A DNA stretch of 64,000 nt, from positions 348,668 to 412,667 of the forward strand of contig NZ_FWEX01000006.1 of assembly GCF_900170025.1 (NCBI RefSeq), in the 5' to 3' direction. The DNA comes from Nitrospira sp. ND1. Its GTDB lineage: Bacteria > Nitrospirota > Nitrospiria > Nitrospirales > Nitrospiraceae. A program made the translations under genes and the position numbers. Shown here piece by piece: positions 4,601 through 21,191 of this stretch (within the stretch, counting starts at the first letter, position 1; each line of letters opens with the position of its first letter). The notes under the pieces are model-generated. The model worked only from the letters and a program-made list of their open reading frames with translations, was not told the DNA's origin and made no database searches.

Positions 4601-5280
4601 CGTCCGGCTTCCTCATCTTCCAGCATATAGCCGGCCCCCCGCACAGTCGTAATCAACGCCGGAGAAAAGTCGCGATCCATCTTCGCCCGCAACGACCGGA
4701 TATGCGCATCCACGATATTCGTCATAGGGTCATAACTGATGTCCCACACGTGCTCGATGATGGCGGTCCTGGTCAGCACACGATTCTTGTTCCGCAAGAG
4801 AAATTCGAGCAGCGCGTACTCCTTGTTCGTCAGCGCGATTTCATTGCCGCTCCTGCACACCCGGTGAGTCGCCGGATCCAGCTCCAGGTCGGCGGCCGTC
4901 AGCCGGGCCTGCAGTTGAGGCCCGCCACGTCGCAACAGGGCCCTCGCTCTCGCGAGGAGTTCTGCGAAGGCAAACGGTTTCGTCAAATAGTCATCGGCGC
5001 CCATGTCCAGACCGGAGACCTTGTCCTGCACCGTATCGCGGGCGGTCAACAGCAAGACAGGCGCCGTCACGCCGGTATCGCGTAAACGACGACAGAGTGA
5101 CAGGCCATCGAGCACAGGCAGCATGATGTCCAGGATGATGAGATCGTACGGATTCGCGATGCCGAGCTCGAACCCCTGCTCGCCATTAGACGCGACATCC
5201 ACCGCATAGCGCTCTTCCTTCAAGCCCTTTCGGATGAATTGCGCCAGATCAGCATCATCTTCTACGAGAAGAATGCGCAT
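4597..5280 (-). CDS. OmpR/PhoB-family response regulator
   Basis: This encodes 227 residues. The ATG at 5280 is chosen because MRILLVEDDADL is the standard receiver beginning; a longer frame to 5367 adds 29 unrelated residues. The receiver domain has the acidic pair D8/D9, phospho-acceptor D51 (LIILDIMLP), Thr near 79 (LLTARD) and Lys near 101 (YLTKPF). A C-terminal winged-helix DNA-binding domain follows (about 125-222: LTNKEYALLEFLLRNKNRVLTR, DAHIRSLRAKMD, TVRGAGYML). It is paired with the overlapping kinase at 3155 and very probably regulates the pair and nearby envelope genes; targets are unknown. Confidence 0.94.
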   Translation of the reverse strand: MRILLVEDDADLAQFIRKGLKEERYAVDVASNGEQGFELGIANPYDLIILDIMLPVLDGLSLCRRLRDTGVTAPVLLLTARDTVQDKVSGLDMGADDYLTKPFAFAELLARARALLRRGGPQLQARLTAADLELDPATHRVCRSGNEIALTNKEYALLEFLLRNKNRVLTRTAIIEHVWDISYDPMTNIVDAHIRSLRAKMDRDFSPALITTVRGAGYMLEDEEAGR

Positions 5281-5522: not shown

Positions 5523-6188
5523 TCAGTATGGGGAAGCTGCGATAGAGCGCTCGTGGGTGGTGTTGGCCTTCGCGCTCGTGACAACACGCAAGTGAGGCGC
5601 GACGCGTTCGGGGAGACCCATCCCGATCGTACTCCATTCGTAGACCGTCTCGTGCGCGCGCGCGATCTTTTCCACGGCCTGCGGCTCGTTCTTCCACCGC
5701 AGCATGTCCAAGCAGGGAATGACCGCTTGCCAATTCAAGTCAGGCACCTGTTTGAGTTGCTCCGCGCATGTCGCGATCAAGGCCAACTCCTTAAATTCAC
5801 GATAGACCTTGATCACTTCGGGGGCGTCCAGAGCATCGTACACGGTCGAGACGATCGGAATCGGGCTACGACGCATCAGCGGCAAACAAGACAATCCTGA
5901 GTGAAGATGGATGATGTCGAAGGACGGCAGCGTGGCGAACGCTTTCTCCAATGCCAGCATGGCCAATGCCTCCGCGAGATGGCGTTTCGGCGCAGGATAG
6001 GATCGCATGGAAAGCGGAGCGACGGGGATCAGCTCACCGGCTGTTCTGCTGTCCCCACTGGCAAAGACCATCACTTCATGTCCCAGCCGGGTCAATTGCT
6101 TCGTCAAATGGAAGATCATCCTGCCCTGCGGGTCCTGACTCTCGGATGACACCTGTTCCAGAAACGGGCTGATGTGAGCAATCCGCAT
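5523..6188 (-). CDS. Glycosyltransferase family 4-like, N-terminal domain only
   Basis: This encodes 221 residues, against about 350-400 for complete GT4 enzymes. The N-terminus MRIAHISPF..., then MIFHLTKQLTRLGHEVMVFASGDSRTAGEL and FDIIHLHSGLSCLPLMRR, are the acceptor-binding Rossmann half of a GT-B glycosyltransferase. After about residue 150 there is no EX7E nucleotide-sugar-binding half, and the frame ends in ordinary sequence with no sign of the missing domain in the next 240 bp. It may be a remnant, a regulatory half or a partner of another subunit. It is preceded by AAGGGAAAAA and is not overlapped by neighbours. Catalytic activity as written is doubtful. Confidence 0.75.
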   Translation of the reverse strand: MRIAHISPFLEQVSSESQDPQGRMIFHLTKQLTRLGHEVMVFASGDSRTAGELIPVAPLSMRSYPAPKRHLAEALAMLALEKAFATLPSFDIIHLHSGLSCLPLMRRSPIPIVSTVYDALDAPEVIKVYREFKELALIATCAEQLKQVPDLNWQAVIPCLDMLRWKNEPQAVEKIARAHETVYEWSTIGMGLPERVAPHLRVVTSAKANTTHERSIAASPY

Positions 6189-9563: not shown

Positions 9564-10219
9564 CCCGTAGGTAGCATCGTGGGATCACGGGTACTCGCGC
9601 GGGGAACATGCGAATGGTGTTCTTTGAGTAGCGCCCGTCACTAAGGACGGGCGCTACAACGCTCCAAGTCGGGCGCTGTGGTGTCTTGTGTGTTTCAATC
9701 CTCGCCCGTCACTAAGGACGGGCGCTACCAGCGAGTGTACGGAAACACATCGAAGTTCCCGGGTTTCAATCCTCGCCCGTCACTAAGGACGGGCGCTACG
9801 GCGGGAGTAGCTTCTTGTGCGCGTAGCTCTTTTGTTTCAATCCTCGCCCGTCACTAAGGACGGGCGCTACATTGCAAGGCTCGGCGTGGTGTCCAGGTCG
9901 GTGGTTTCAATCCTCGCCCGTCACTAAGGACGGGCGCTACGGTTTACCCATGGTTTCCTCTCTCGGATTTCTAAGTTTCAATCCTCGCCCGTCACTAAGG
10001 ACGGGCGCTACGCAGGCCCATCGTGAAGCCGTGGCCCACTTCATAGTTTCAATCCTCGCCCGTCACTAAGGACGGGCGCTACGGGATTCCAGCGACGGCC
10101 TCATCGTCTGGCTCATGTTTCAATCCTCGCCCGTCACTAAGGACGGGCGCTACGGGACGTGCTCTTTCTCTGTCACGCCAAGCCGAAAGTGACCTTCCCC
10201 CAGTTTCATGGACACCAGG

Positions 10220-11083
10220 TTACGCGACTGCGGCCCTCGCTTCGTACTCGGCCGGGGAGTCATAGCCGAGGGTCGAGTGCCGACGCGTCCGATTGTAGAA
10301 CACCTCGATGTATTCGAAGATGTCCTGTTTCGCTTCCGCTCGTGTGGCATAGTGCCGATGGTACACGAGTTCCCGCTTCAATGTTCCGAAGAAGCTCTCG
10401 ACACAGGCGTTGTCCCAGCAATTGCCGGTGCGGCTCATGCTGGCCGTGATGCCATACGTGGTGAGCAACTGCTGGTAGGCCCCTGCCGCATATTGCCCCC
10501 CGCGATCGGAGTGATGCAGGAGTCCTGCTGAGGGCTGCCGCGTGGCGAGCGCCATGCGGAGGGCCTGTTCGGTTAACTCTCCGGTCAAGCGCGGGCCCAT
10601 CGCCCAGCCGATGACGGCACGCGAGTACAGATCCAGCAGCACGGCCAGATACAGCCAGCCCTCCAGCGTCCAGACGTAGGTGATATCGCCCGCCCAGACC
10701 TGGTTGGGCTGGGGCACCCTGAACTGGCGGTCAAGCGTGTTTGCCGCCACGGGCAAGCCGTGCGACGAGTACGTCGTGGCCCGCCACTTCTTCACGGTCT
10801 TGGCCCGGAGGCCATCGTGGCGCATCAGCCGCGCCACGCGATGCTCTCCCACCTGGTGGCCCTGCTTGCGGAGCGCCCGCCAGATGCTCGGACTGCCGTA
10901 GGTCTGGCGACTGTCCTGATGGAGCACGCGGATGGTGACCAGGAGGGTCCGATTGGCGGCGGCCCGCCGACTCTCGGGACGTCCGCGCCACGCATAATAC
11001 CCCGCAGGGGAAACCGCCAGTGCTCGGCACATGAGGCGGATCGGATAGCGACGGTCGTGTTCCTGAATGACTCGGTATCTCAT
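10220..11083 (-). CDS. IS3-family transposase OrfB (DDE integrase)
   Basis: This encodes 287 residues. An HTH_21-type segment at the N-terminus (IRLMCRALAVSPAGYYAWRGR) is followed by the rve integrase core. The catalytic triad is visible as D in VWAGDITYVWT, D in LLHHSDRGGQYA and E in CVESFFGTLKRE, and the C-terminus is YNRTRRHSTLGYDSPAEYE. It overlaps the orfA stop by 4 bp. An AAGGAG 5 nt before its ATG could support independent starts. A T_TTT_TTA slippery heptamer at 11119-11125 in orfA lies in the right phase to make an OrfAB fusion by -1 frameshifting; the -1 frame is open from the heptamer into orfB. Confidence 0.96.
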   Translation of the reverse strand: MRYRVIQEHDRRYPIRLMCRALAVSPAGYYAWRGRPESRRAAANRTLLVTIRVLHQDSRQTYGSPSIWRALRKQGHQVGEHRVARLMRHDGLRAKTVKKWRATTYSSHGLPVAANTLDRQFRVPQPNQVWAGDITYVWTLEGWLYLAVLLDLYSRAVIGWAMGPRLTGELTEQALRMALATRQPSAGLLHHSDRGGQYAAGAYQQLLTTYGITASMSRTGNCWDNACVESFFGTLKRELVYHRHYATRAEAKQDIFEYIEVFYNRTRRHSTLGYDSPAEYEARAAVA

Positions 11084-11376
11084 CGCGACTCCTTCGCGAA
11101 GAACGCCGCCGCACGCTTTAAAAAATCCCGCTCCTGCTTCAGCACGGCATTTTCACGCCGCAGCTGGGCCAGTTCCGCCTGCTCGACCTGTAAAGATTGT
11201 CGGGTCTGTCCACGCTCTTCTGCCTGCTGCTGCTCCGCTCGCCATCGGTAGAGGAGATGATCGGCAATCCCCAGATCCCGCGCCACCTGGGCGACGGGAT
11301 GCCCTGACTCCCGGACTAACCGCACGGCTTCTTCCTTGAACGTCTCCGTATACGACCGTCGTGTCTTCGTGCTCAT
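11080..11376 (-). CDS. IS3-family transposase OrfA
   Basis: This encodes 98 residues from the ATG at 11376, chosen because TCGGAGGACAGG precedes it and because MSTKTRRSYTETFKEEAVRLV is the usual beginning. It holds the helix-turn-helix (HPVAQVARDLGIADHLLYRWRAE) that binds IS ends. A leucine-zipper-like coiled coil follows (QVEQAELAQLRRENAVLKQERDFLKRAAAFF). Near the end the FLK codons contain the T_TTT_TTA slippage site. It works with OrfB. Confidence 0.95.
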   Translation of the reverse strand: MSTKTRRSYTETFKEEAVRLVRESGHPVAQVARDLGIADHLLYRWRAEQQQAEERGQTRQSLQVEQAELAQLRRENAVLKQERDFLKRAAAFFAKESR

Positions 11377-13196
11377 CCTGTCCTCCGATTTCCTCATTCT
11401 CCCACGTATGGAAGTGTCTGTGAAATCGGGGGAAGGTCAAAGTTTCAATCCTCGCCCGTCACTAAGGACGGGCGCTACATCAACAATGATCCGATCAGCC
11501 GAGGAATCTAAGTTTCAATCCTCGCCCGTCACTAAGGACGGGCGCTACCTGTGGAGTCGCGGGCACCAGTGGGTTTCCGCCTTGTTTCAATCCTCGCCCG
11601 TCACTAAGGACGGGCGCTACTTGAGCGACATAAGAGCCAGCGCAGCGCGAGCCCGTTTCAATCCTCGCCCGTCACTAAGGACGGGCGCTACGGGCGCACG
11701 CTTGTCCAGGGGCAAACGCTTGTCGGTTTCAATCCTCGCCCGTCACTAAGGACGGGCGCTACGGCAGGGAGTAACAACTAATGAGCCTCTCAGCCAGTTT
11801 CAATCCTCGCCCGTCACTAAGGACGGGCGCTACGATAGTTGGTGTAGAACTTAATGGCTTCCGACTTGTTTCAATCCTCGCCCGTCACTAAGGACGGGCG
11901 CTACGGCAGAACCACCGGGCAAAGGGCTTATTGTCATCGTTTCAATCCTCGCCCGTCACTAAGGACGGGCGCTACCGTTTCGCCACAGCGGTGGGGCGTC
12001 CTGCCCCTGTGGTTTCAATCCTCGCCCGTCACTAAGGACGGGCGCTACGCCCGATGAGTTGGCAGAATTTCTTTCGCTGTACTGGTTTCAATCCTCGCCC
12101 GTCACTAAGGACGGGCGCTACTGCGAGGCGTTGATGCATTACTGCCGGTTCTCCGTGTTTCAATCCTCGCCCGTCACTAAGGACGGGCGCTACGGCCGCA
12201 GGGGCCACAATCAACCGTGTCACGCTGGTTTCAATCCTCGCCCGTCACTAAGGACGGGCGCTACTGCACGTCGCCATTCTTGGTCATGGGCTTGATCCAG
12301 TTTCAATCCTCGCCCGTCACTAAGGACGGGCGCTACGGCCTCGGCGCGACGTAGTACATCATATAGAAATAGTTTCAATCCTCGCCCGTCACTAAGGACG
12401 GGCGCTACTACAAGCTGCACGGTGAGTTGCCACGCTATGACGTTTCAATCCTCGCCCGTCACTAAGGACGGGCGCTACGCTCAAAGCGGATGTGATGCGA
12501 GTGGGCGGACAGGTTTCAATCCTCGCCCGTCACTAAGGACGGGCGCTACGCCGTCACCACCGGCCAGGGTGCGCGGTTTCCTTCGTTTCAATCCTCGCCC
12601 GCCCCGAAGGACGGGCGCTACCTCATGCGCTTGGAGCGCCGCATCGGCGCGATGCCGTTTCAATCCTCGCCCGCCCCGAAGGACGGGCGCTACGGGAGGG
12701 TTTAGGTTTGGGAAGGTGAGAATCTGGGGTTTCAATCCTCGCCCGCCCCGAAGGACGGGCGCTACGATGAGCGGCGTAACTTGTCCTGATCGATAAACGG
12801 TTTCAATCCTCGCCCGCCCCGAAGGACGGGCGCTACTGGAAAGCCGCATCCGCCGGAGCCGATTATGAAGAGTTTCAATCCTCGCCCGCCCCGAAGGACG
12901 GGCGCTACTGAAGACTGAGGGGGATCTTCTCGCGCTGTGTAAGTTTCAATCCTCGCCCGCCCCGAAGGACGGGCGCTACTTAGAACGAAGGAGAAACGAA
13001 AATGTATAAGCCAGTTTCAATCCTCGCCCGCCCCGAAGGACGGGCGCTACGCGTCTACGATGGTCACGAATTGCCAACTATTATTGTTTCAATCCTCGCC
13101 CGCCCCGAAGGACGGGCGCTACGGTGAGTTGCTGCACCAATCGAGTCAACTTATCAACGGTTTCAATCCTCGCCCGCCCCGAAGGACGGGCGCTAC

Positions 13197-13374
13197 CGCG
13201 TGAACAAAAACCCATGATTTCCCGAGAGGTTTGCCTGCGGTCGGCGCGAACCTACCGGAATCACCTGGGGGCGGCGACAATGGTTGGGTGTCACCTGATG
13301 AAATCTCCTTTCAATTCGCGCTCTTCTCGTCTGCGCGATCCCAGGCCCTATTTGGCAGCGCTTCTGGTTCGCGT
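13197..13374 (-). promoter_or_regulatory. CRISPR leader
   Basis: This 178-bp non-coding stretch lies between the cas2 stop and the first (newest) repeat, on the side expected from repeat orientation. It should hold the array promoter and the integration signal read by Cas1-Cas2 (and Cas4). I see no strong -35/-10 pair in it; assignment is by position. Confidence 0.7.
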
Positions 13375-13665
13375 TTACAAAACCAATGGTTCGTCAAAAT
13401 CGACTGACGTGTCCACACCAAACACCTGTACATACTTTTCTTTGGGCTCTACCAATCGATACACCCGCAAACTGTCTTCCTTCTCATCAATGATCTCGAC
13501 AAGGCGCCGGACAAGTTCTTCAAATTGCATCTCAGTGACCGCGCATTCGAACACCGATTTCTGTACGCGTTGCCCGAAATCCTGGCAGGCTTGCGCGATC
13601 TTGCGTAAGCGCCGCCGCCCTCCTGTTGATTCCGTTGCCACGTCATACGCGATCAAGACATTCAT
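13375..13665 (-). CDS. cas2: CRISPR adaptation nuclease-fold protein Cas2
   Basis: This encodes 96 residues. The N-terminal strand MNVLIAYDVAT carries the conserved Asp. Then come RRRLRKIAQACQDFGQRVQKSVFECAVTEMQFEELVRRL and a C-terminal strand pair typical of type I-C Cas2 (SLRVYRLVEPKEKYVQVFG). It bridges Cas1 dimers during spacer integration. A GGAGGGTGC ribosome site precedes the ATG. It is the last gene of the cas operon, 8 bp after cas1, with the leader next to it. Confidence 0.97.
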   Translation of the reverse strand: MNVLIAYDVATESTGGRRRLRKIAQACQDFGQRVQKSVFECAVTEMQFEELVRRLVEIIDEKEDSLRVYRLVEPKEKYVQVFGVDTSVDFDEPLVL

Positions 13666-13673
13666 GCACCCTC

Positions 13674-14705
13674 CTACCGGTACAAAAACGGCGGATAGGC
13701 CTCCAGATCTCCGCGCAACACGCGGGCCAGTAACCGTGCTTGCACGTGTGGAATCAAACCTAACGGCATCTTTTGATCCAAGACTGGGTGGGTAATCTCT
13801 TCCTGCTTACGTTTTTGATAGGCGACGATGACCTCTTTGCGGGCAGCATCTTCCAGATGCACCGCCCCACCCGGCCGCGCATGAAACTGATTGGCGGCCA
13901 CCTGTTTCCGGTTGATCAACGTGAGTGCGAGCCGATCGGCAAAGACACTCCGCAACTCTTCCATGAGGTCCAGCGCCAAGGCTGCTCGGCCTGGACGCAA
14001 CGCATGCAGAAATCCCATCTGTGGATCAAGGCCGACGCCTTCCAGCGCTGCGACGCAATCGTTCATCAACAAGGCATAGAGAAACGACAAGAGTGCATTC
14101 ACCGGATCGGTCGGAGGCCGCCGGTTTCGACCATTCAGCGTAAACGTTGCGCGGTCTTCACGGACCATACGGTCGAACGTGGCGAAGTATTTTCTCGCGG
14201 CCTCGCCTTCCAAACCTCTCAGGTAGTCCAGGTCCTCCGCGAGCGGCACGCGACCCAATACGTTTGCCAGGGACTCTGCTGTCTGCCGCAACGTCTCGCC
14301 ATCGCCTGGGTCGTCGGTATCTCGCGCAGCACGCAAAACGATCTGACGGCTATTCTGAATTTTCCCACCCACTACATGCCGAGCGATTGTCAGGGTTTTG
14401 TCGGCATTGCCGATGGCTGCATGTTGTGCGCAACGCAATAACACGTTGCCCGAGATCGGCCCTTCAACGCGCGCTTGAAAGCGTCCATTCCGATCGAGAA
14501 ACACCACGAATCGGCCATCTTGGGCGCAGCGCGCCAGCGCCGCCGGACTCACCAGCACGTCGCCAAAACAGACGATGCCACCCAGGTGATGGATCGGCAC
14601 TTGCAGCTTCGTTTCCCGCTCGACCTCGACCCGGAGCGTGTCGTGATCGAGCCGGAGATAGGCCCCTTCGGTCGTGAGATAGAGGGTATTGAGTAATTGG
14701 TGCAT
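13674..14705 (-). CDS. cas1: CRISPR integrase Cas1 (type I-C)
   Basis: This encodes 343 residues, the usual I-C length. The ATG at 14705 is chosen because MHQLLNTLYLTTEGAYLRLDHDTL is the family start; a longer frame to 14801 reads through the end of cas4. It has the N-terminal beta domain and a C-terminal helical catalytic domain with the conserved Glu/His/Asp region (NALLSFLYALLMNDCVAALEGVGLDPQMGFLH, LALDLMEELRSVFADRLAL). It cuts and joins new spacers at the leader-repeat junction with Cas2. There is no clear ribosome site; the 7-bp gap to cas4 suggests translational coupling. Confidence 0.97.
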   Translation of the reverse strand: MHQLLNTLYLTTEGAYLRLDHDTLRVEVERETKLQVPIHHLGGIVCFGDVLVSPAALARCAQDGRFVVFLDRNGRFQARVEGPISGNVLLRCAQHAAIGNADKTLTIARHVVGGKIQNSRQIVLRAARDTDDPGDGETLRQTAESLANVLGRVPLAEDLDYLRGLEGEAARKYFATFDRMVREDRATFTLNGRNRRPPTDPVNALLSFLYALLMNDCVAALEGVGLDPQMGFLHALRPGRAALALDLMEELRSVFADRLALTLINRKQVAANQFHARPGGAVHLEDAARKEVIVAYQKRKQEEITHPVLDQKMPLGLIPHVQARLLARVLRGDLEAYPPFLYR

Positions 14706-14712
14706 AGGAGGC

Positions 14713-15351
14713 TCAGCTCGGTTCCGATATGACAAACAGCGTACGGACCAACGCTGCAGCTCGCTGCTGCTCGCCGATGACCGACGGCATACAGGTCTCA
14801 TTCAATGAACAGTGTTCACAACGTTGATCATTCACCGGAGAGGGAAGAATCTTGTCGCCCAACATCGCGCGAATCGCCGTCACGACCTCTTCCACCCGAA
14901 TTCGCAATGCCGGCGTAAAGATCACTTCACGTCGCCTTCTAGATTTGTGATGAAAGATGGCGCCACGCGGAACATCGCTGCTCAGCATTTCTTCCAGACA
15001 CAGCGCTTGAGCGCAGAGCTGCAAATCATCATTCTCGTATCGCCGGTTCGACCCAGATTTGTATTCGACGGGATAGGGGGTCTCTCCATGAAACTCGACT
15101 ACATCAGCTTTTCCAATCAAACCTAGTCGCTTGGAACAGAGCGGTAAGGCTCGCTCAACTCGTACGCCTTCCTCCCAACCGCTCTCATCCTCTCGATCTG
15201 TTCGTTCGTGAAGATCGTGACCGCGCATGGTGTACACGTTTTCAGAGTACGTCTGCTCCACATGAATCAACGCACATCTCCGAGGGCAGTAGGCGTAGTG
15301 ATTCAGCGCGGAAATAGGAATCAACTCCCGATCAGCATCATCCTGCGGCAT
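14713..15351 (-). CDS. cas4: CRISPR adaptation exonuclease Cas4
   Basis: This encodes 212 residues. The four iron-sulphur cysteines are present: one in HYAYCPRRCALI and three in RCEHCSLNETC. The RecB-like nuclease residues are visible as GKADVVEFHG and YPVEYKSG (Asp, Glu, Lys), with QLCAQALCLEEML following. Cas4 trims pre-spacers and helps select PAM and orientation with Cas1-Cas2. It lies 8 bp after cas7 and immediately before cas1, the normal I-C order. Confidence 0.97.
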   Translation of the reverse strand: MPQDDADRELIPISALNHYAYCPRRCALIHVEQTYSENVYTMRGHDLHERTDREDESGWEEGVRVERALPLCSKRLGLIGKADVVEFHGETPYPVEYKSGSNRRYENDDLQLCAQALCLEEMLSSDVPRGAIFHHKSRRRREVIFTPALRIRVEEVVTAIRAMLGDKILPSPVNDQRCEHCSLNETCMPSVIGEQQRAAALVRTLFVISEPS

Positions 15352-15359
15352 CGTTTGGC

Positions 15360-16355
15360 CTACGACAGCTTGATAAGCGTACCCTTGCTGTCATCCCACA
15401 CCCACAACTCCACGCCTTTCGGTAGATTGGCCACATTCGTTGTTACCGTATAATGCGCGAACTTGCGGGGGCTTCCGATCTTGTCTTCTTTCATTGCCGA
15501 TTCATTGCGCTTCACGTCGATGACGCGGCCGACGTCCAACAACGCTTGTGCAGGCGCACAGCCGAGCATGGCTTGACGCTTACGCTGTTCCGCATTGCTG
15601 TCGGTGCCCACATGTTTAAACACAAACAACCCCCGGCGGGACATCATGCCTTTAGATGCGGAGCGGTCGTGATCCCACATGCCTGCCAATGCCTCCCACA
15701 GATGAGTGAGGTCGTCTTCTGAAAATAGCGTTCCTTGGGCAAGATTGGCGGATACGAACCCTTTGGCAACATAGAGACCATAGGGAATCAGCGCCTTACG
15801 GCCCATGGTGCGGAGCTTGTCTTCTTCTTGTTCGTTTTCCCATTTCTGGTAGTCCGCAACCGACGTGGCACCGGATACTTTTTCCGCAACAGCCATGCGG
15901 GTAATTGAAACATCCATCGGCAGAATTGGATCAACTGAACGTGAAAACGCCACCTGCACCGGGCCTCGCACTTGTCCGGCGTTGGGACCGGTGGACATAA
16001 CCGCGCCAAAGGTCCGCACATCGAAAAACTGTTGGCACATCCAATCTCGAGCTTTTCCAACTTGTGTTCTGTTTCCACCACCAGCAGGGGAACCGCCCGT
16101 TGCTTCATGCGCCGCAGTAATCGGCTTATTTAGGTTGGATGAATGCTCGACAAAAATAGCATTGGGTGCCTGATTGCCAAACGCGGCCTGTATGTAATTG
16201 CGCACCCGCCGCTTGATGGCCACATCTGAAACCAGCCCGTGCATGTCTTCCGCGTCAATGCGTGGGCTGTTGCCGGCATCTGGGTCGCCGTTCGGATTGC
16301 CGTTTTCGCAATCGAAGAGATACAAAAATTCGTAACGGTTTTTAATAGCGCTCAT
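15360..16355 (-). CDS. cas7: Cascade backbone protein Cas7c (Csd2)
   Basis: This encodes 331 residues. The N-terminus has the Csd2 signature [20 protein letters not shown], then [12 protein letters not shown] and the conserved [29 protein letters not shown] block. It polymerises along the crRNA spacer in the I-C effector. The ribosome site AAGGAG precedes the ATG by 7 nt. It lies 11 bp after the cas8c stop, so it shares that transcript; multiple copies per complex would need stronger translation than cas8c. Confidence 0.97.
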
Positions 16356-16366
16356 TGGTTTTCTCC

Positions 16367-16741
16367 TTATACGGTTTCGTTGGTTTTCTTGCTTGATCGC
16401 AGTGCGGCAAGTTGCTGGTAGTAACCGAGGGCAAATAACCCCTGACCGTTGAGGTCAAGAATGCGTGGTGCGCCGTCGCCCAAGTGACCCATCACATCGG
16501 CGATCTGATTTTCGTACCACCAAGCCAAGCCGCCTTCGAGCTTGCCCAAGTGGTTACGCGCATTGCTGGTCAAGCGGCCGAGAATCAGTCCCGGAGTCTG
16601 GCTAGCGGCAGCGTAGTAGCGTTGCACTACGCCTGCGCCCACGTCGCCCAGTGCGGCGCGTTGTAAATTTGAAAATACTGCCAGTAACCGCCCGCAGTGG
16701 TAGGCTGGTTCTGGATGATTGGGGTTAAGATACGCAGTCAT
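16367..16741 (-). CDS. cas11c: Internal small subunit Cas11c, translated from within cas8c
   Basis: Inside cas8c an in-frame ATG at 16741 is preceded by GGAGGTGATC (16747-16756), a ten-base match to the anti-Shine-Dalgarno, with 5-nt spacing. It would yield 124 residues starting [17 protein letters not shown] and rich in helices. Independent translation of a C-terminal Cas8c fragment as the Cas11 small subunit is known for type I-C systems. The sequence here supports the same arrangement unusually well; expression itself is inferred. Confidence 0.88.
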
Positions 16742-18097
16742 GGTGTGATCACCTCCAGATTTAAGTCGAACAAAATAGGCTTTGATAAGCCCCATGCAGG
16801 CGTGGTTGAACGGAGGCTGGTCTTTATCGACCAGATTGGAACGGAACCTCGCTAGCGCCTGCACCATTAACGGTTGCGGGATGGGTAGACGCTGCACTGC
16901 CACCTTCCATAGCGTAGCGCTGGTAGGCGCGGGCAAGTCCTTCAGTTCGCGCACCAATGCTCCACACACTGCCATGAACTTGGGATCATGAGCTTGCCCT
17001 TTGCCGTCGCGGGCGACAATGGCGAGATCGGCAAACCATGCTTCGACATTACGCACCAAATCCTCGAAAGGTCCTTCCATCCAGTCGCGCACCATCACTC
17101 GCCCTGATGCACCCGAGAGCACCAGTGCGTAGTAATGGTTGTTGCCCAAATCAACGCGTTCGCCTTTGCGGATGGATTCAAGCAGACGACGCGCAGCCCC
17201 CAGTGCAGCCGCCTCCGTCTGTTCCTTCGACTCGAAACCGCTCACCCATTCCAGAGGATCGTCTTGTGGGACAACCTGTTCCTTGAACCAGTGAACGACC
17301 AACGCGTTGGCGAGCTTGCGGGAGTGGCTGCGAATCAAGTCGTTGAGGCCATCCACATATTTCTGAGCAGCTTCGGCGCTCATGGCGGCGTTGGCCGATT
17401 GATCTAAACCGAAAGAACCAAACGCAGCTTTATCGAAACCCACCATCACATCGCCCATGCTCAAGCCACCAACGCCAGATAGCCCTGTAATCTTAGGATG
17501 GGTTGGCAAAGCTTGAGTTGCATTACCCGTGAGGAAACAGACCATGTCGCCCTCGTCAGAAGACCTAGAATTTGGCTGGCCTTCTTCCATATCCTTCTTT
17601 CGCCATTCGCGCCACCAAGCCTGAACAGTTTTTTCCTCACGCGGATCGACACCATCCACCCGCCAGCCCAGCCAATCGGCAGGCTTGGCTTTGTGCTGAG
17701 TCAGAGCTTCACGAAGTTTCGCGAGCAGACCATCATCTTCCAACGCACTTACAACCGGAATGAGCGTGGGAATCGAGCCTGAAGCCTTGCGGAGCAGATC
17801 AACAAAGAATCGGTGTTTGTTCTTGGTGTTGACAATCTTTTCGGCCTCTTCATTGCTCTTGAACAGAAGCGCCACCGTTTGCACCGTTTCCACGAGAAAA
17901 TGGGATTTACCGCCCGCATTTGTGCCTGGCATTTCCGTGCAACGAGGTTGCATCACCCCACGTTTGCCATCGCCCAGCGGCAACACATTCAGAAACCGTC
18001 CGTCAGCGGCCAGTTCGACGCACCAGCGCACTTCACGGGTCCTGAAGCCGGGTTCAGAATCAAGCCTGTTTCCATAATTCATCAGTGCTTGCAGCAT
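16367..18097 (-). CDS. cas8c: Cascade large subunit Cas8c (Csd1)
   Basis: This encodes 576 residues, a standard length for Csd1. Recognisable segments are [12 protein letters not shown] near the start, [25 protein letters not shown] in the middle and the helical C-terminus. It recognises the PAM and helps recruit Cas3. GGGGAGG lies 8 nt before the ATG, 2 bp after cas5c. Its last 124 codons can be translated separately as Cas11c (see that entry). Confidence 0.96.
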
Positions 18098-18099
18098 GG

Positions 18100-18870
18100 C
18101 TATTGCCTCCCCGGCTTTTTCACCACCGAGCTGTCGAACGGCGGAACTTCCAGTACGCCGTTGCGGATGTGGGCATCAAACAGAGTGATGAACGGTTTGT
18201 CGGTATCCTTAACCGTGTCCTTTCGCAGGTCAAACACGTCGTAGAGCATAAAACCCAGATGCTGATCCATGGCAGCGCGTGACTGGCTTTTGGCATCTGA
18301 CGATTCCACATACTCAAAGAACGCGGGGAATTCTCGACAGCCGAAATAGGGTTGCTGAAAGCATTTGCCCTGCTTAGCGCGACGCTCGAAACAGGCGTTG
18401 AACTTGCCGTAGTCGTGACTGAAGACTGGCTTGGGAACGATCTTCGCCGTGAGTCGGTAACGCACGTTCTTGAGCGCCATAGTTTGACGCTGTGTACGGC
18501 CCTTCTGATCGGTACCAAGCTCATCCTTGCCGCCGTCCGCCCAGATGGGTTCGGGTTGCTCGCGCCCTTCCATCCACGCCTTGAGCGTACGATCCGCAGG
18601 CACTTTGTCCTTTACTTCGTTCCGCCGCAAGGCAATGTAGCGCGGCAGTTCCAGCACCTCGATACGAATTAGCTGCCAGTGGAAATAGGGACGCATAATG
18701 CTTTCCCTGCCTTGCCGTTCCCGTAGTCCATCCCAGTAGATGGCGTCGAAGATGCCACGTGCCGCAGAAGGCGTGATGACCGGGTAGGAGAAACGCTCGA
18801 CCTTCATTTCTGGCCGCGTAAAGCAGGCGAAGTCGCCCCAGACTTCCAATGTGTGTGTGCCGTTAGCCAT
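18100..18870 (-). CDS. cas5: Cas5c (Cas5d), crRNA-processing subunit
   Basis: This encodes 256 residues. The N-terminal RRM-type start LEVWGDFACFTRPEMKVERFSYPVITPSAARGIFDAIYW is the I-C Cas5 signature; Tyr 45 corresponds in position to the catalytic Tyr of Bacillus halodurans Cas5d. The later RTQRQTMALKNVRYRL block aligns with the region that carries the catalytic Lys/His there, though I cannot assign those residues with certainty. It cuts the repeat below the hairpin and caps the crRNA 5' handle. The ribosome site is AGGAGGAGAC. Confidence 0.95.
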   Translation of the reverse strand: MANGTHTLEVWGDFACFTRPEMKVERFSYPVITPSAARGIFDAIYWDGLRERQGRESIMRPYFHWQLIRIEVLELPRYIALRRNEVKDKVPADRTLKAWMEGREQPEPIWADGGKDELGTDQKGRTQRQTMALKNVRYRLTAKIVPKPVFSHDYGKFNACFERRAKQGKCFQQPYFGCREFPAFFEYVESSDAKSQSRAAMDQHLGFMLYDVFDLRKDTVKDTDKPFITLFDAHIRNGVLEVPPFDSSVVKKPGRQ

Positions 18871-18878
18871 GTCTCCTC

Positions 18879-21191
18879 CTATGCAATGAACACCTGTTCG
18901 CCTTTGGGTGGATTCAACCCGATGGTATCGTCGTAAAAATCTCCTTCAAGAATGAACCACTCGTCGGAGACGCCACCGCGCCGCAACTTCGCCGGAATTG
19001 CCCAGGCGGGTGAGCCGTCATTGGTGCGATAGACACTGACGGCAAGCCCTTGGGCGCGGCGCATCCAGTTGGCGCTGATGCCTTGTCGATCGGCTTCCCT
19101 TCGCAATTCCAGGAATTCGTCGTGTCGGCTCACCCATGGCACCAGCACTTGAATGGCATCCTGAACAATGAGGCGGTATACCTTGGCAATCTCCACAAAA
19201 TCGAGCTCCTGAATCGCTCTTGTAAGATCAGCATTCTGACTGGCTGGATCGTTCAGATTGTAGAGCCGGTGATAATAGGCCCGGAAGACTTCGGGGTCGT
19301 TGATATCCAGATTATTGTCGTGCAGCTTGAGCAAGGCTTGTGTGACTTGAGTCGCCTGATAGTAGTTATGCGTGGGAAACCGTTTTCTCCATCCAGCCTC
19401 CTCATCCGGTTCAAAGACCACAACCTCGCCAAGACGGCCCTGCTCATTGAGCCTGCCTTCCCGGTTACAGCGTCCTGCCGCTTGTGCAATAGAATCTAAT
19501 GGCGCCATAGCACGGAAGACGGTGGGGAAATCCACGTCCACTCCTGCTTCAACACATTGGGTGGAAACAAGGCGGCAGGGAAGTCCGGCTGCAAGTTGAT
19601 CCCTGACCTTATCCATCACCACCCGTCGGTGTTCAGCACACAAGTTGGTTGAGAGATGGAACTCGCTTTCCGTCCCGTCCATCTCATTGAGCAGAGCGAG
19701 TGCGTGGCGTTTAAGGTTAACCACCACCAATGCCTGATCCACGTCTCGCAATTCAGCCGCGAGTTGAGTCCAAGTGCGCTTCTCACCAATTTCCGGCCAG
19801 CGCACGGCGACACGTTTCAGTGCCGCGAATAGTGCTGGGTGTTCCGGTACGGCCTCGATCGGTTGCCAGCCTTGCACGGCGTGCTTTCTTACGGCCTCGT
19901 TCAGAGTATCGAACGCGGGTTGTGTCGCGGTGGCAAAAACTACGGTGGAGCGATAGGCCGCCGACAGGTGAGACAGCGCCGCCAAGGTAGGTACCGCCAA
20001 GTGCTGAGGCAGACTCTGCGCCTCGTCGAACAGGATGACCGAGTTCATTAGGTTATGCAGCTTGCGACAACTGGACGGGCGGTTGGAGAAAAGCGACTCC
20101 AACAACTGCACGTTGGTGGTCAACACGATTGGCGCATCCCAATTTTCCGCGAGCAAACGGCGCTGACGTTCGCTCGCTCCTTCGGCATCCTGCTGCTCCG
20201 CTTCTACCCCCAACCCAGCCAGACTATGGTGTTCCAATACGAAATTATCCTCGGATGCCTTGAATACCGCTCGATAGATACGCGCCGTCTGCTCAATGAC
20301 AGTCAAGAAAGGGACAGCCAGAACGATCCTCTTCAGTCCATGCTTCTTCGCGTGTTCCAGCGCGAACTTGAGCATCGCCAGCGTCTTGCCTGAACCGGTC
20401 GGCGCGGTCAACGTGAACACGCCACGCTCCGCCAGGCCTGCATGCATTACTGCACCCCACAAGTTTTCCCGTGCCTTCCGCACCGCAATCTGTGCTTCAG
20501 TGACGGCGTGCAACGAGGCCATGTGAGCATCAAGCGCGGCAATTGCTGCACTGGGATCCAGCCTTGGGCCTTCAGGGCGTGGATGCTTCTCCTGTGCGTC
20601 ACCATCGAAGTGCGACTCGGTGTCGAGAAAGTCCGCATCCACCAGACACGAAAAGAGCAGCCGCACATCAAGCATGGCGGAGACGGCTTGCGCCCACGAG
20701 TTAAGAACAAAACTAGATGGTGCGCTGAATTCAATTCCATCCCTGGCGGCAAGAGACTCCAGGCGTTCCAGGTCGGGTTCACTGAGGGCTAACCCTGGTA
20801 AAACAGCGGCAGAGAGATTGCCTGGCAGTAACCGCCTTAAGGAATCTTTACTCCCGCGCTGCAAGCCAATGTGATGACCTTCGATAGCTAACGCAGCGGC
20901 AACTGCACGGTGCCTCAGAGCCAACGATGCACCCTGTGACCAATGGTCCAACCCCTTATCTTTGCCGTGCAACCGTGCCTGAAAGCGTTCGCCATATTTC
21001 CCAAGATCGTGCAATAAACCAGCGAGTGCCGCTTCTTCAGCACCGCTCTGTCCTTGCAGGAATTCTTTTGCGATCTTCGAGACGCTGGTGAGATGCTCCG
21101 CTAACTTATGCCATTTCCCATATCCGTTCGCGCTGTGTGCGAAGTACTGGCGTGGTTGGGACTCAGCGTCTGTGTGATAATCAAGCTTCAT
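18879..21191 (-). CDS. cas3: CRISPR helicase-nuclease Cas3
   Basis: This encodes 770 residues. The N-terminal HD nuclease has FAHSANGYGKWHKLAEHL and AALAGLLHDLGKYGERFQ. The helicase has Walker A APTGSGKTLAML near residue 262, the DEAQ box (VILFDEAQSLPQ) near 390, motif III FATATQP, and C-terminal motifs including VSTQCVEAGVDVDFP and QAAGRCNREGR. It degrades target DNA after Cascade binding. The ATG has no ribosome site of its own; a 17-codon ORF with a strong one overlaps it (see 21181-21234). It is the first cas gene and lies 8 bp from cas5c. Confidence 0.97.
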   Translation of the reverse strand: MKLDYHTDAESQPRQYFAHSANGYGKWHKLAEHLTSVSKIAKEFLQGQSGAEEAALAGLLHDLGKYGERFQARLHGKDKGLDHWSQGASLALRHRAVAAALAIEGHHIGLQRGSKDSLRRLLPGNLSAAVLPGLALSEPDLERLESLAARDGIEFSAPSSFVLNSWAQAVSAMLDVRLLFSCLVDADFLDTESHFDGDAQEKHPRPEGPRLDPSAAIAALDAHMASLHAVTEAQIAVRKARENLWGAVMHAGLAERGVFTLTAPTGSGKTLAMLKFALEHAKKHGLKRIVLAVPFLTVIEQTARIYRAVFKASEDNFVLEHHSLAGLGVEAEQQDAEGASERQRRLLAENWDAPIVLTTNVQLLESLFSNRPSSCRKLHNLMNSVILFDEAQSLPQHLAVPTLAALSHLSAAYRSTVVFATATQPAFDTLNEAVRKHAVQGWQPIEAVPEHPALFAALKRVAVRWPEIGEKRTWTQLAAELRDVDQALVVVNLKRHALALLNEMDGTESEFHLSTNLCAEHRRVVMDKVRDQLAAGLPCRLVSTQCVEAGVDVDFPTVFRAMAPLDSIAQAAGRCNREGRLNEQGRLGEVVVFEPDEEAGWRKRFPTHNYYQATQVTQALLKLHDNNLDINDPEVFRAYYHRLYNLNDPASQNADLTRAIQELDFVEIAKVYRLIVQDAIQVLVPWVSRHDEFLELRREADRQGISANWMRRAQGLAVSVYRTNDGSPAWAIPAKLRRGGVSDEWFILEGDFYDDTIGLNPPKGEQVFIA

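What the first reader, a model, noticed from the sequence alone, without database searches (positions are those of the whole stretch)
12585..13196. CRISPR repeat type switches part-way along the array, to a UUCG-tetraloop version
The 24 leader-distal repeats have one central sequence; the nine leader-proximal ones share a block change with no intermediates. In crRNA sense the older hairpin is GCCCGUC-CUUAGU-GACGGGC. The newer one is GCCCGUC-CUUCGG-GGCGGGC: the stem keeps pairing (one U-A becomes U-G) and the loop becomes the very stable cUUCGg tetraloop. Because each new repeat is copied from the leader-proximal one, one multi-base replacement there, then propagation, explains the sharp boundary. 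It may alter Cas5c processing and dates the newest eight or so spacers.
Basis: partly seen in the sequence, partly recalled or inferred. Interest (0 to 1): 0.72.

Follow-up and report, generated by a model that had tools for sequence, protein, structure and literature searches.

The report
Type I-C CRISPR array, two repeat forms
In this Nitrospira-type genome a bacterial immune-memory array carries two versions of its repeat in two clean blocks; both versions are common in related bacteria, and the switch is best read as a seam where two such loci recombined, in a loop that its processing enzyme probably does not read.

Summary
The type I-C array (9629-13196) has 23 full repeats plus one truncated terminal repeat with centre TCACT. 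They are followed, next to the leader, by nine with centre CCCCG, with one switch and no intermediates. The stem is kept and the CCCCG loop is cUUCGg. The "new" repeat did not originate here. CCCCG makes up pure arrays in many species (Nitrospira, Betaproteobacteria), including the sister species G044. TCACT makes up pure arrays in other Nitrospira. The surrounding locus is a mosaic: leader-cas2-cas1 match G044 at about the genome-background level, while cas4-cas3 come from a distant lineage that also has TCACT arrays. The boundary is therefore best read as a recombination junction between allelic I-C loci (about 0.62) rather than an in-situ multi-base mutation (about 0.25). Which block is foreign is unresolved. 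Functionally it is probably near-neutral: both centres occur with each of two deeply divergent Cas5c types, and published work reports that the I-C loop and upper stem are dispensable for processing. Propagation from the leader-proximal repeat still explains the uniform blocks, but the dating claim is not secure. Interest is modest; this is a new member of a known kind.

The parts
9593..9658 (-). array trailer: relic of an adjacent I-E-like repeat (ACTCGCGCGGGGAACA) and truncated terminal I-C repeat (9629-9658) with TCACT centre
   Evidence: the same degenerate array end is found in G044 (centre CCCCG) and G027 (centre TCACT)
9692..12549 (-). leader-distal block: 23 full repeats, centre TCACT (crRNA loop CUUAGU)
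10190..11439 (-). IS3-family insertion sequence inside the array at a spacer/repeat border; inverted ends TGACCTTCCCCC, 3-bp target duplication AAG
12550..12584 (-). junction spacer, flanked by a TCACT repeat on the distal side and a CCCCG repeat on the leader side
12585..13196 (-). leader-proximal block: nine repeats, centre CCCCG (crRNA loop cUUCGg), eight internal spacers
13197..13374 (-). leader; 94% identical to the leader of G044 (pure CCCCG array)
13375..13665 (-). cas2
   Evidence: TIGR01573
13674..14801 (-). cas1, type I-C; close similarity to G044 ends at about 14814
   Evidence: (TIGR03640)
14713..15351 (-). cas4; start of the segment closest to G027/G022/G030
15360..16355 (-). cas7/csd2
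   Evidence: TIGR02589
16367..18097 (-). cas8c/csd1
   Evidence: TIGR01863
18100..18870 (-). cas5c, the predicted crRNA-processing enzyme
   Evidence: TIGR01876
18879..21191 (-). cas3
   Evidence: TIGR01587 and TIGR01596

Best explanation
This is one ordinary type I-C CRISPR array made of two allelic repeat types joined at a recombination seam (12550-12584). The locus sits at a chromosomal site shared across the genus, where related species carry allelic I-C loci. A segment carrying CCCCG repeat(s), the leader and cas2 (with at least part of cas1) of the G044 kind was brought next to a TCACT array of the kind found in other Nitrospira, by crossover through the near-identical 37-bp repeats. The cas4-cas3 module was exchanged separately or in the same event. 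After that, each new spacer copied the CCCCG repeat next to the leader, keeping the proximal block uniform. Both forms are expected to be processed by the same Cas5c, since they differ only in the loop and one upper stem pair. Shown: the two blocks, the pre-existing alleles, the mosaic locus, and repeat centre not tracking Cas5c. Inferred: that the array seam is a crossover, which block is foreign, how many of the nine repeats arrived together, and the near-neutrality.
For: Both repeat types are standing alleles: pure CCCCG arrays in G044, G030, other Nitrospira, Hydrogenophilales and Sulfuricellaceae; pure TCACT arrays in G021, G022, G027. The own genome has no second array that could act as donor. 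CCCCG is three steps from TCACT; TCACT is at least two steps from every other centre seen with the same flanks, and no intermediate occurs in this array. The locus is mosaic: leader 94% and cas1/cas2 about 91% to G044, near the 92-95% background of nearby chromosomal DNA, then a drop to 67% in cas4 at about 14814 (max chi-square 98.6, 0/10000 permutations). From there cas4-cas3 are mostly 80-94% to G027, G022 or G030, whose background is only about 75%. Leader sites favour G044 over G027 by 32:3. The array ends of window, G044 and G027 are homologous yet carry TCACT, CCCCG and TCACT centres, so repeat type has been replaced between allelic arrays. Repeat centre is independent of effector type: TCACT with E1 (G022, G027) and E2 (G021); CCCCG with E1 (G030) and E2 (L012); Cas5c of E1 and E2 are 35-39% identical.
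Against: No spacer is shared with any other array held, so block transfer of repeats is not directly seen. The leader match to G044 is also what vertical descent predicts, so by itself it does not separate recombination from mutation in a common ancestor. The 36-bp trailer flank does not discriminate donors. Leader-tree support for grouping by repeat type is weak. cas2-cas1 are not clearly of either donor type.
Confidence: 0.62

Rival explanations
1. In-situ mutation: the leader-proximal TCACT repeat suffered a multi-base change to CCCCG in this lineage or in the ancestor shared with G044, and was then propagated by about eight spacer acquisitions; G044 later lost the old repeats by array collapse.
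For: Sharp one-step boundary, leader-proximal position and uniform block fit. Leader and cas1-cas2 identity to G044 fits vertical descent. Propagation of repeat mutations through new repeats is described in the literature (PMC4869251). Another array (L021/L023) shows a one-base switch from 2 CCCCG to 53 TCCCG repeats, the expected look of such an event.
Against: Needs three substitutions in five bases landing exactly on an allele already common elsewhere, with no intermediate. G044's terminal repeat is also CCCCG, which propagation alone cannot give. The locus has another, clear recombination junction.
Confidence: 0.25
2. Two neighbouring arrays of one genome, one TCACT and one CCCCG, were fused by deletion of the DNA between them.
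For: Adjacent arrays of different kinds occur at loci of this family: I-E-like repeats lie near the I-C array in G044, G035, L021 and L027.
Against: No relative held has two I-C arrays of these two types side by side; there is no relic of a second leader at the junction, and the repeat-spacer spacing is unbroken there.
Confidence: 0.06
3. Assembly artefact joining two strains or two loci.
For: Repeats are a classic site of misassembly (general knowledge).
Against: The genome is in 6 contigs, 100% complete with 0.38% contamination, the window lies in a 3.46-Mb contig, the own genome has no other copy of either repeat, and flanks on both sides are native (about 90-95% to sister species).
Confidence: 0.05

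Closest known systems
Type I-C (Csd/Dvulg) CRISPR-Cas systems
   Same: Full cas3-cas5c-cas8c-cas7-cas4-cas1-cas2 set, hairpin repeat ending in ATTGAAAC, leader between cas2 and array
   Different: Array with two repeat centres in two blocks and an IS3 element inside
Arrays with repeat mutations propagated through new repeats (as noted in CRISPRDetect, PMC4869251)
   Same: Variant repeats in a contiguous block at the leader end
   Different: Here the variant is a three-base change to an allele already common in other species, and the locus is a recombination mosaic
In-situ exchange of CRISPR-Cas modules (reviewed in PMC6452270)
   Same: Adaptation module conserved while effector modules of the same subtype are swapped at one locus
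   Different: Here repeat type and leader also vary, and a seam probably lies inside the array itself

Membership tests
Type I-C CRISPR-Cas | cas8c (csd1), cas7 (csd2) and cas5c signature genes with cas3, no cas6 | tested here: met
   TIGR01863 290 bits, TIGR02589 298 bits, TIGR01876 131 bits, all above curated cut-offs; no cas6 among the seven genes of the operon scanned
Type I-C CRISPR-Cas | Cas1 of the I-C kind with cas4 and cas2 | tested here: met
   TIGR03640 521 bits, cut-off 385; TIGR00372 138 bits; TIGR01573 67 bits
Type I-C CRISPR-Cas | Hairpin repeat with conserved stem base and ATTGAAAC-type 3' end | tested here: met
Type I-C CRISPR-Cas | Cas5c cleaves both repeat forms | not testable with these tools
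   needs in vitro cleavage or small-RNA sequencing
Recombinant (mosaic) CRISPR locus | Significant change of closest relative along the locus | tested here: met
   junction at about 14814, chi-square 98.6, 0/10000 permutations
Recombinant (mosaic) CRISPR locus | Shared spacers identifying the donor of either array block | tested here: not met
   none of 32 spacers shared with the other arrays held (557 spacers in the set, some held twice). Shared spacers would be proof but are not required, as spacers turn over; so the source of the array seam stays inferred

The most novel reading that the evidence does not exclude
The two blocks are functionally different: cUUCGg repeats give a more stable 3' hairpin and hence better-protected or better-loaded crRNAs than CUUAGU repeats from the same transcript, so that a repeat-allele swap re-weights old against new immune memories.
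Probability: 0.08. Interest if true: 0.55.

Novelty: new member of a known kind. Interest (0 to 1): 0.3.

Why it matters
It is a clean natural case of a CRISPR array made of two standing repeat alleles in one transcript under one Cas5c, which lets loop effects on crRNA yield be tested without engineering. It also warns that a leader-proximal repeat variant need not be a new mutation and cannot by itself date spacers. The wider pattern, one I-C adaptation module and repeat family combined with at least three deeply divergent I-C effector modules within one genus, is a good system for studying module exchange.

Tried and rejected
Local donor of the CCCCG repeat: no other copy of either repeat in the own genome. 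Dating or donor tracing by shared spacers: none shared. Donor assignment by trailer flank: 36 bp outside the repeat, 6 against 7 differences, not informative. Grouping of leaders by repeat type across the genus: weakly supported, so not used as the main argument. A first family-wide pattern was one base too long and found nothing, not even the window; it was replaced. Direct reading of the Cas5c papers and of Kupczok 2015 failed because they are not held; the Cas5c result is taken second-hand from CRISPRmap (PMC3783184). A papers search for Nitrospira I-C CRISPR work returned only one unrelated hit.

Full report
What is there. The window holds a complete type I-C CRISPR-Cas locus on the minus strand: cas3, cas5c, cas8c, cas7, cas4, cas1, cas2 (21191 down to 13375), leader 13197-13374, then the array down to 9629. 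32 full 37-bp repeats occur, 23 with centre TCACT (9692-12549) and nine with centre CCCCG (12585-13196); a truncated terminal repeat (9629-9658) has the TCACT centre. There is exactly one switch and no intermediate; a perfect two-block order of 23 + 9 is one of 28 million. An IS3-family element with inverted ends and a 3-bp target duplication (10190-11439) sits at a spacer/repeat border of the older part.

Structure. In crRNA sense both forms keep the hairpin. TCACT gives an 8-bp stem with loop CUUAGU (-16.1 kcal/mol).

The variant is not new. A scan of one genome for each of about 85,000 species finds the CCCCG repeat in pure arrays in Nitrospira, Hydrogenophilales and Sulfuricellaceae, plus a single copy in a Rhodocyclaceae contig. 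TCACT forms pure arrays in several Nitrospira; TCCCG and TCTCG form others. In the genus, 13 of 29 genomes carry repeats of this family. Among the arrays fetched in the genus only this one is block-mixed; outside it, the array on L021/L023 switches once from 2 CCCCG to 53 TCCCG repeats, a one-base change. TCACT is at least two changes from every other observed centre and three from CCCCG. The "newer" repeat is thus a standing allele that is more widespread than the "older" one.

The locus is a mosaic. rpoB places G044 (pure CCCCG array) and G028 (no such array) as sisters of the window's genome at 97%, and G035 at 94%; G022, G027 and G030 are at 83-85%, and G021 could not be placed. Nearby chromosomal DNA (28-40 kb) is 92-95% identical to the sisters and about 75% to the distant ones. 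Against that background, leader, cas2 and cas1 are 94, 91 and about 91% to G044, as expected for vertical descent. From about 14814, at the cas1/cas4 border, similarity to G044 collapses (67% in cas4), and cas4-cas3 are best matched by G027, G030 and G022, mostly at 80-94%, far above their background (max chi-square 98.6, 0 of 10,000 permutations). In the leader the informative sites favour G044 over G027 by 32 to 3. cas2-cas1 cannot be assigned clearly, which suggests further exchange.

The array ends are allelic. The window, G044 and G027 share the same degenerate terminal repeat and a relic or remainder of an adjacent I-E-like array, but the terminal centre is TCACT in the window and G027 and CCCCG in G044. 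Leader-end propagation cannot change the terminal repeat, so at least once the repeat type was replaced between allelic arrays (or by collapse of an array onto its terminal repeat). The 36 bp of flank beside it does not tell which lineage donated.

Best reading. The boundary at 12550-12584 is most likely a crossover between two allelic I-C loci, helped by the near-identical repeats. Copying of the leader-proximal repeat then kept the nine-repeat block uniform. I cannot tell which block is foreign: the leader and the sister species suggest CCCCG is native and the TCACT block imported; the lone TCACT repeat in G035 (L069:9918) hints the other way. No spacers are shared with any array held, so direct proof is lacking and in-situ mutation keeps about a quarter of the probability. 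For the same reason the nine-repeat block does not securely date its spacers.

Function. The centre does not track the processing enzyme. TCACT arrays occur with effector type E1 (G022, G027) and E2 (G021); CCCCG arrays with E1 (G030) and E2 (L012). Cas5c proteins of E1 and E2 are only 35-39% identical. [quoted passage not shown] So near-neutrality is the best guess, inferred and not tested here. A small effect of the more stable tetraloop on crRNA stability is not excluded.

Placement. This is a member of type I-C by every testable feature. Mixed-repeat arrays and in-situ module exchange are known kinds (PMC4869251; PMC6452270; mixed repeats between arrays are mentioned with a citation in PMC12282179). 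Novelty is that of a tidy new example.

Noticed in passing
window 13375-21191 against L062, L064, L065, L067, L073, L012: One I-C adaptation module (Cas1 85-97% within the genus) is combined with at least three deeply divergent I-C effector modules (Cas5c 35-39%, Cas8c 24-29%, Cas7 27-47% between types) at one chromosomal site.
   Followed up: partly
window 9593-9608; L073 (reverse-complement coordinates) 4669-4757; L069:8740-8828; L021:3944-4156; L027:1619-1889: I-E-like repeats (GGTTCATCCCCACTCGCGCGGGGAACAC and relatives) abut or lie near the end of this I-C array family in different genomes, even in a proteobacterial contig; the window keeps only a relic.
   Followed up: partly
L069:9918-11921 (G035): The sister species carries, near the same site, a single TCACT repeat next to 27 copies of an unrelated repeat (GCTTCAATGGGGCCACGGCATCTGAGCCGTGGAATC) and no close I-C cas genes in the stretch read.
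   Followed up: no
window 10190-11439: IS3-family element inserted exactly at a spacer/repeat border, which may cut transcription of the eight or so oldest spacers.
   Followed up: partly
L073 spacers at 5725/6083 and 5870/6153 (reverse-complement coordinates): G044's array contains two pairs of spacers that are about 97% identical over about 30 nt, as if related targets were sampled twice.
   Followed up: no
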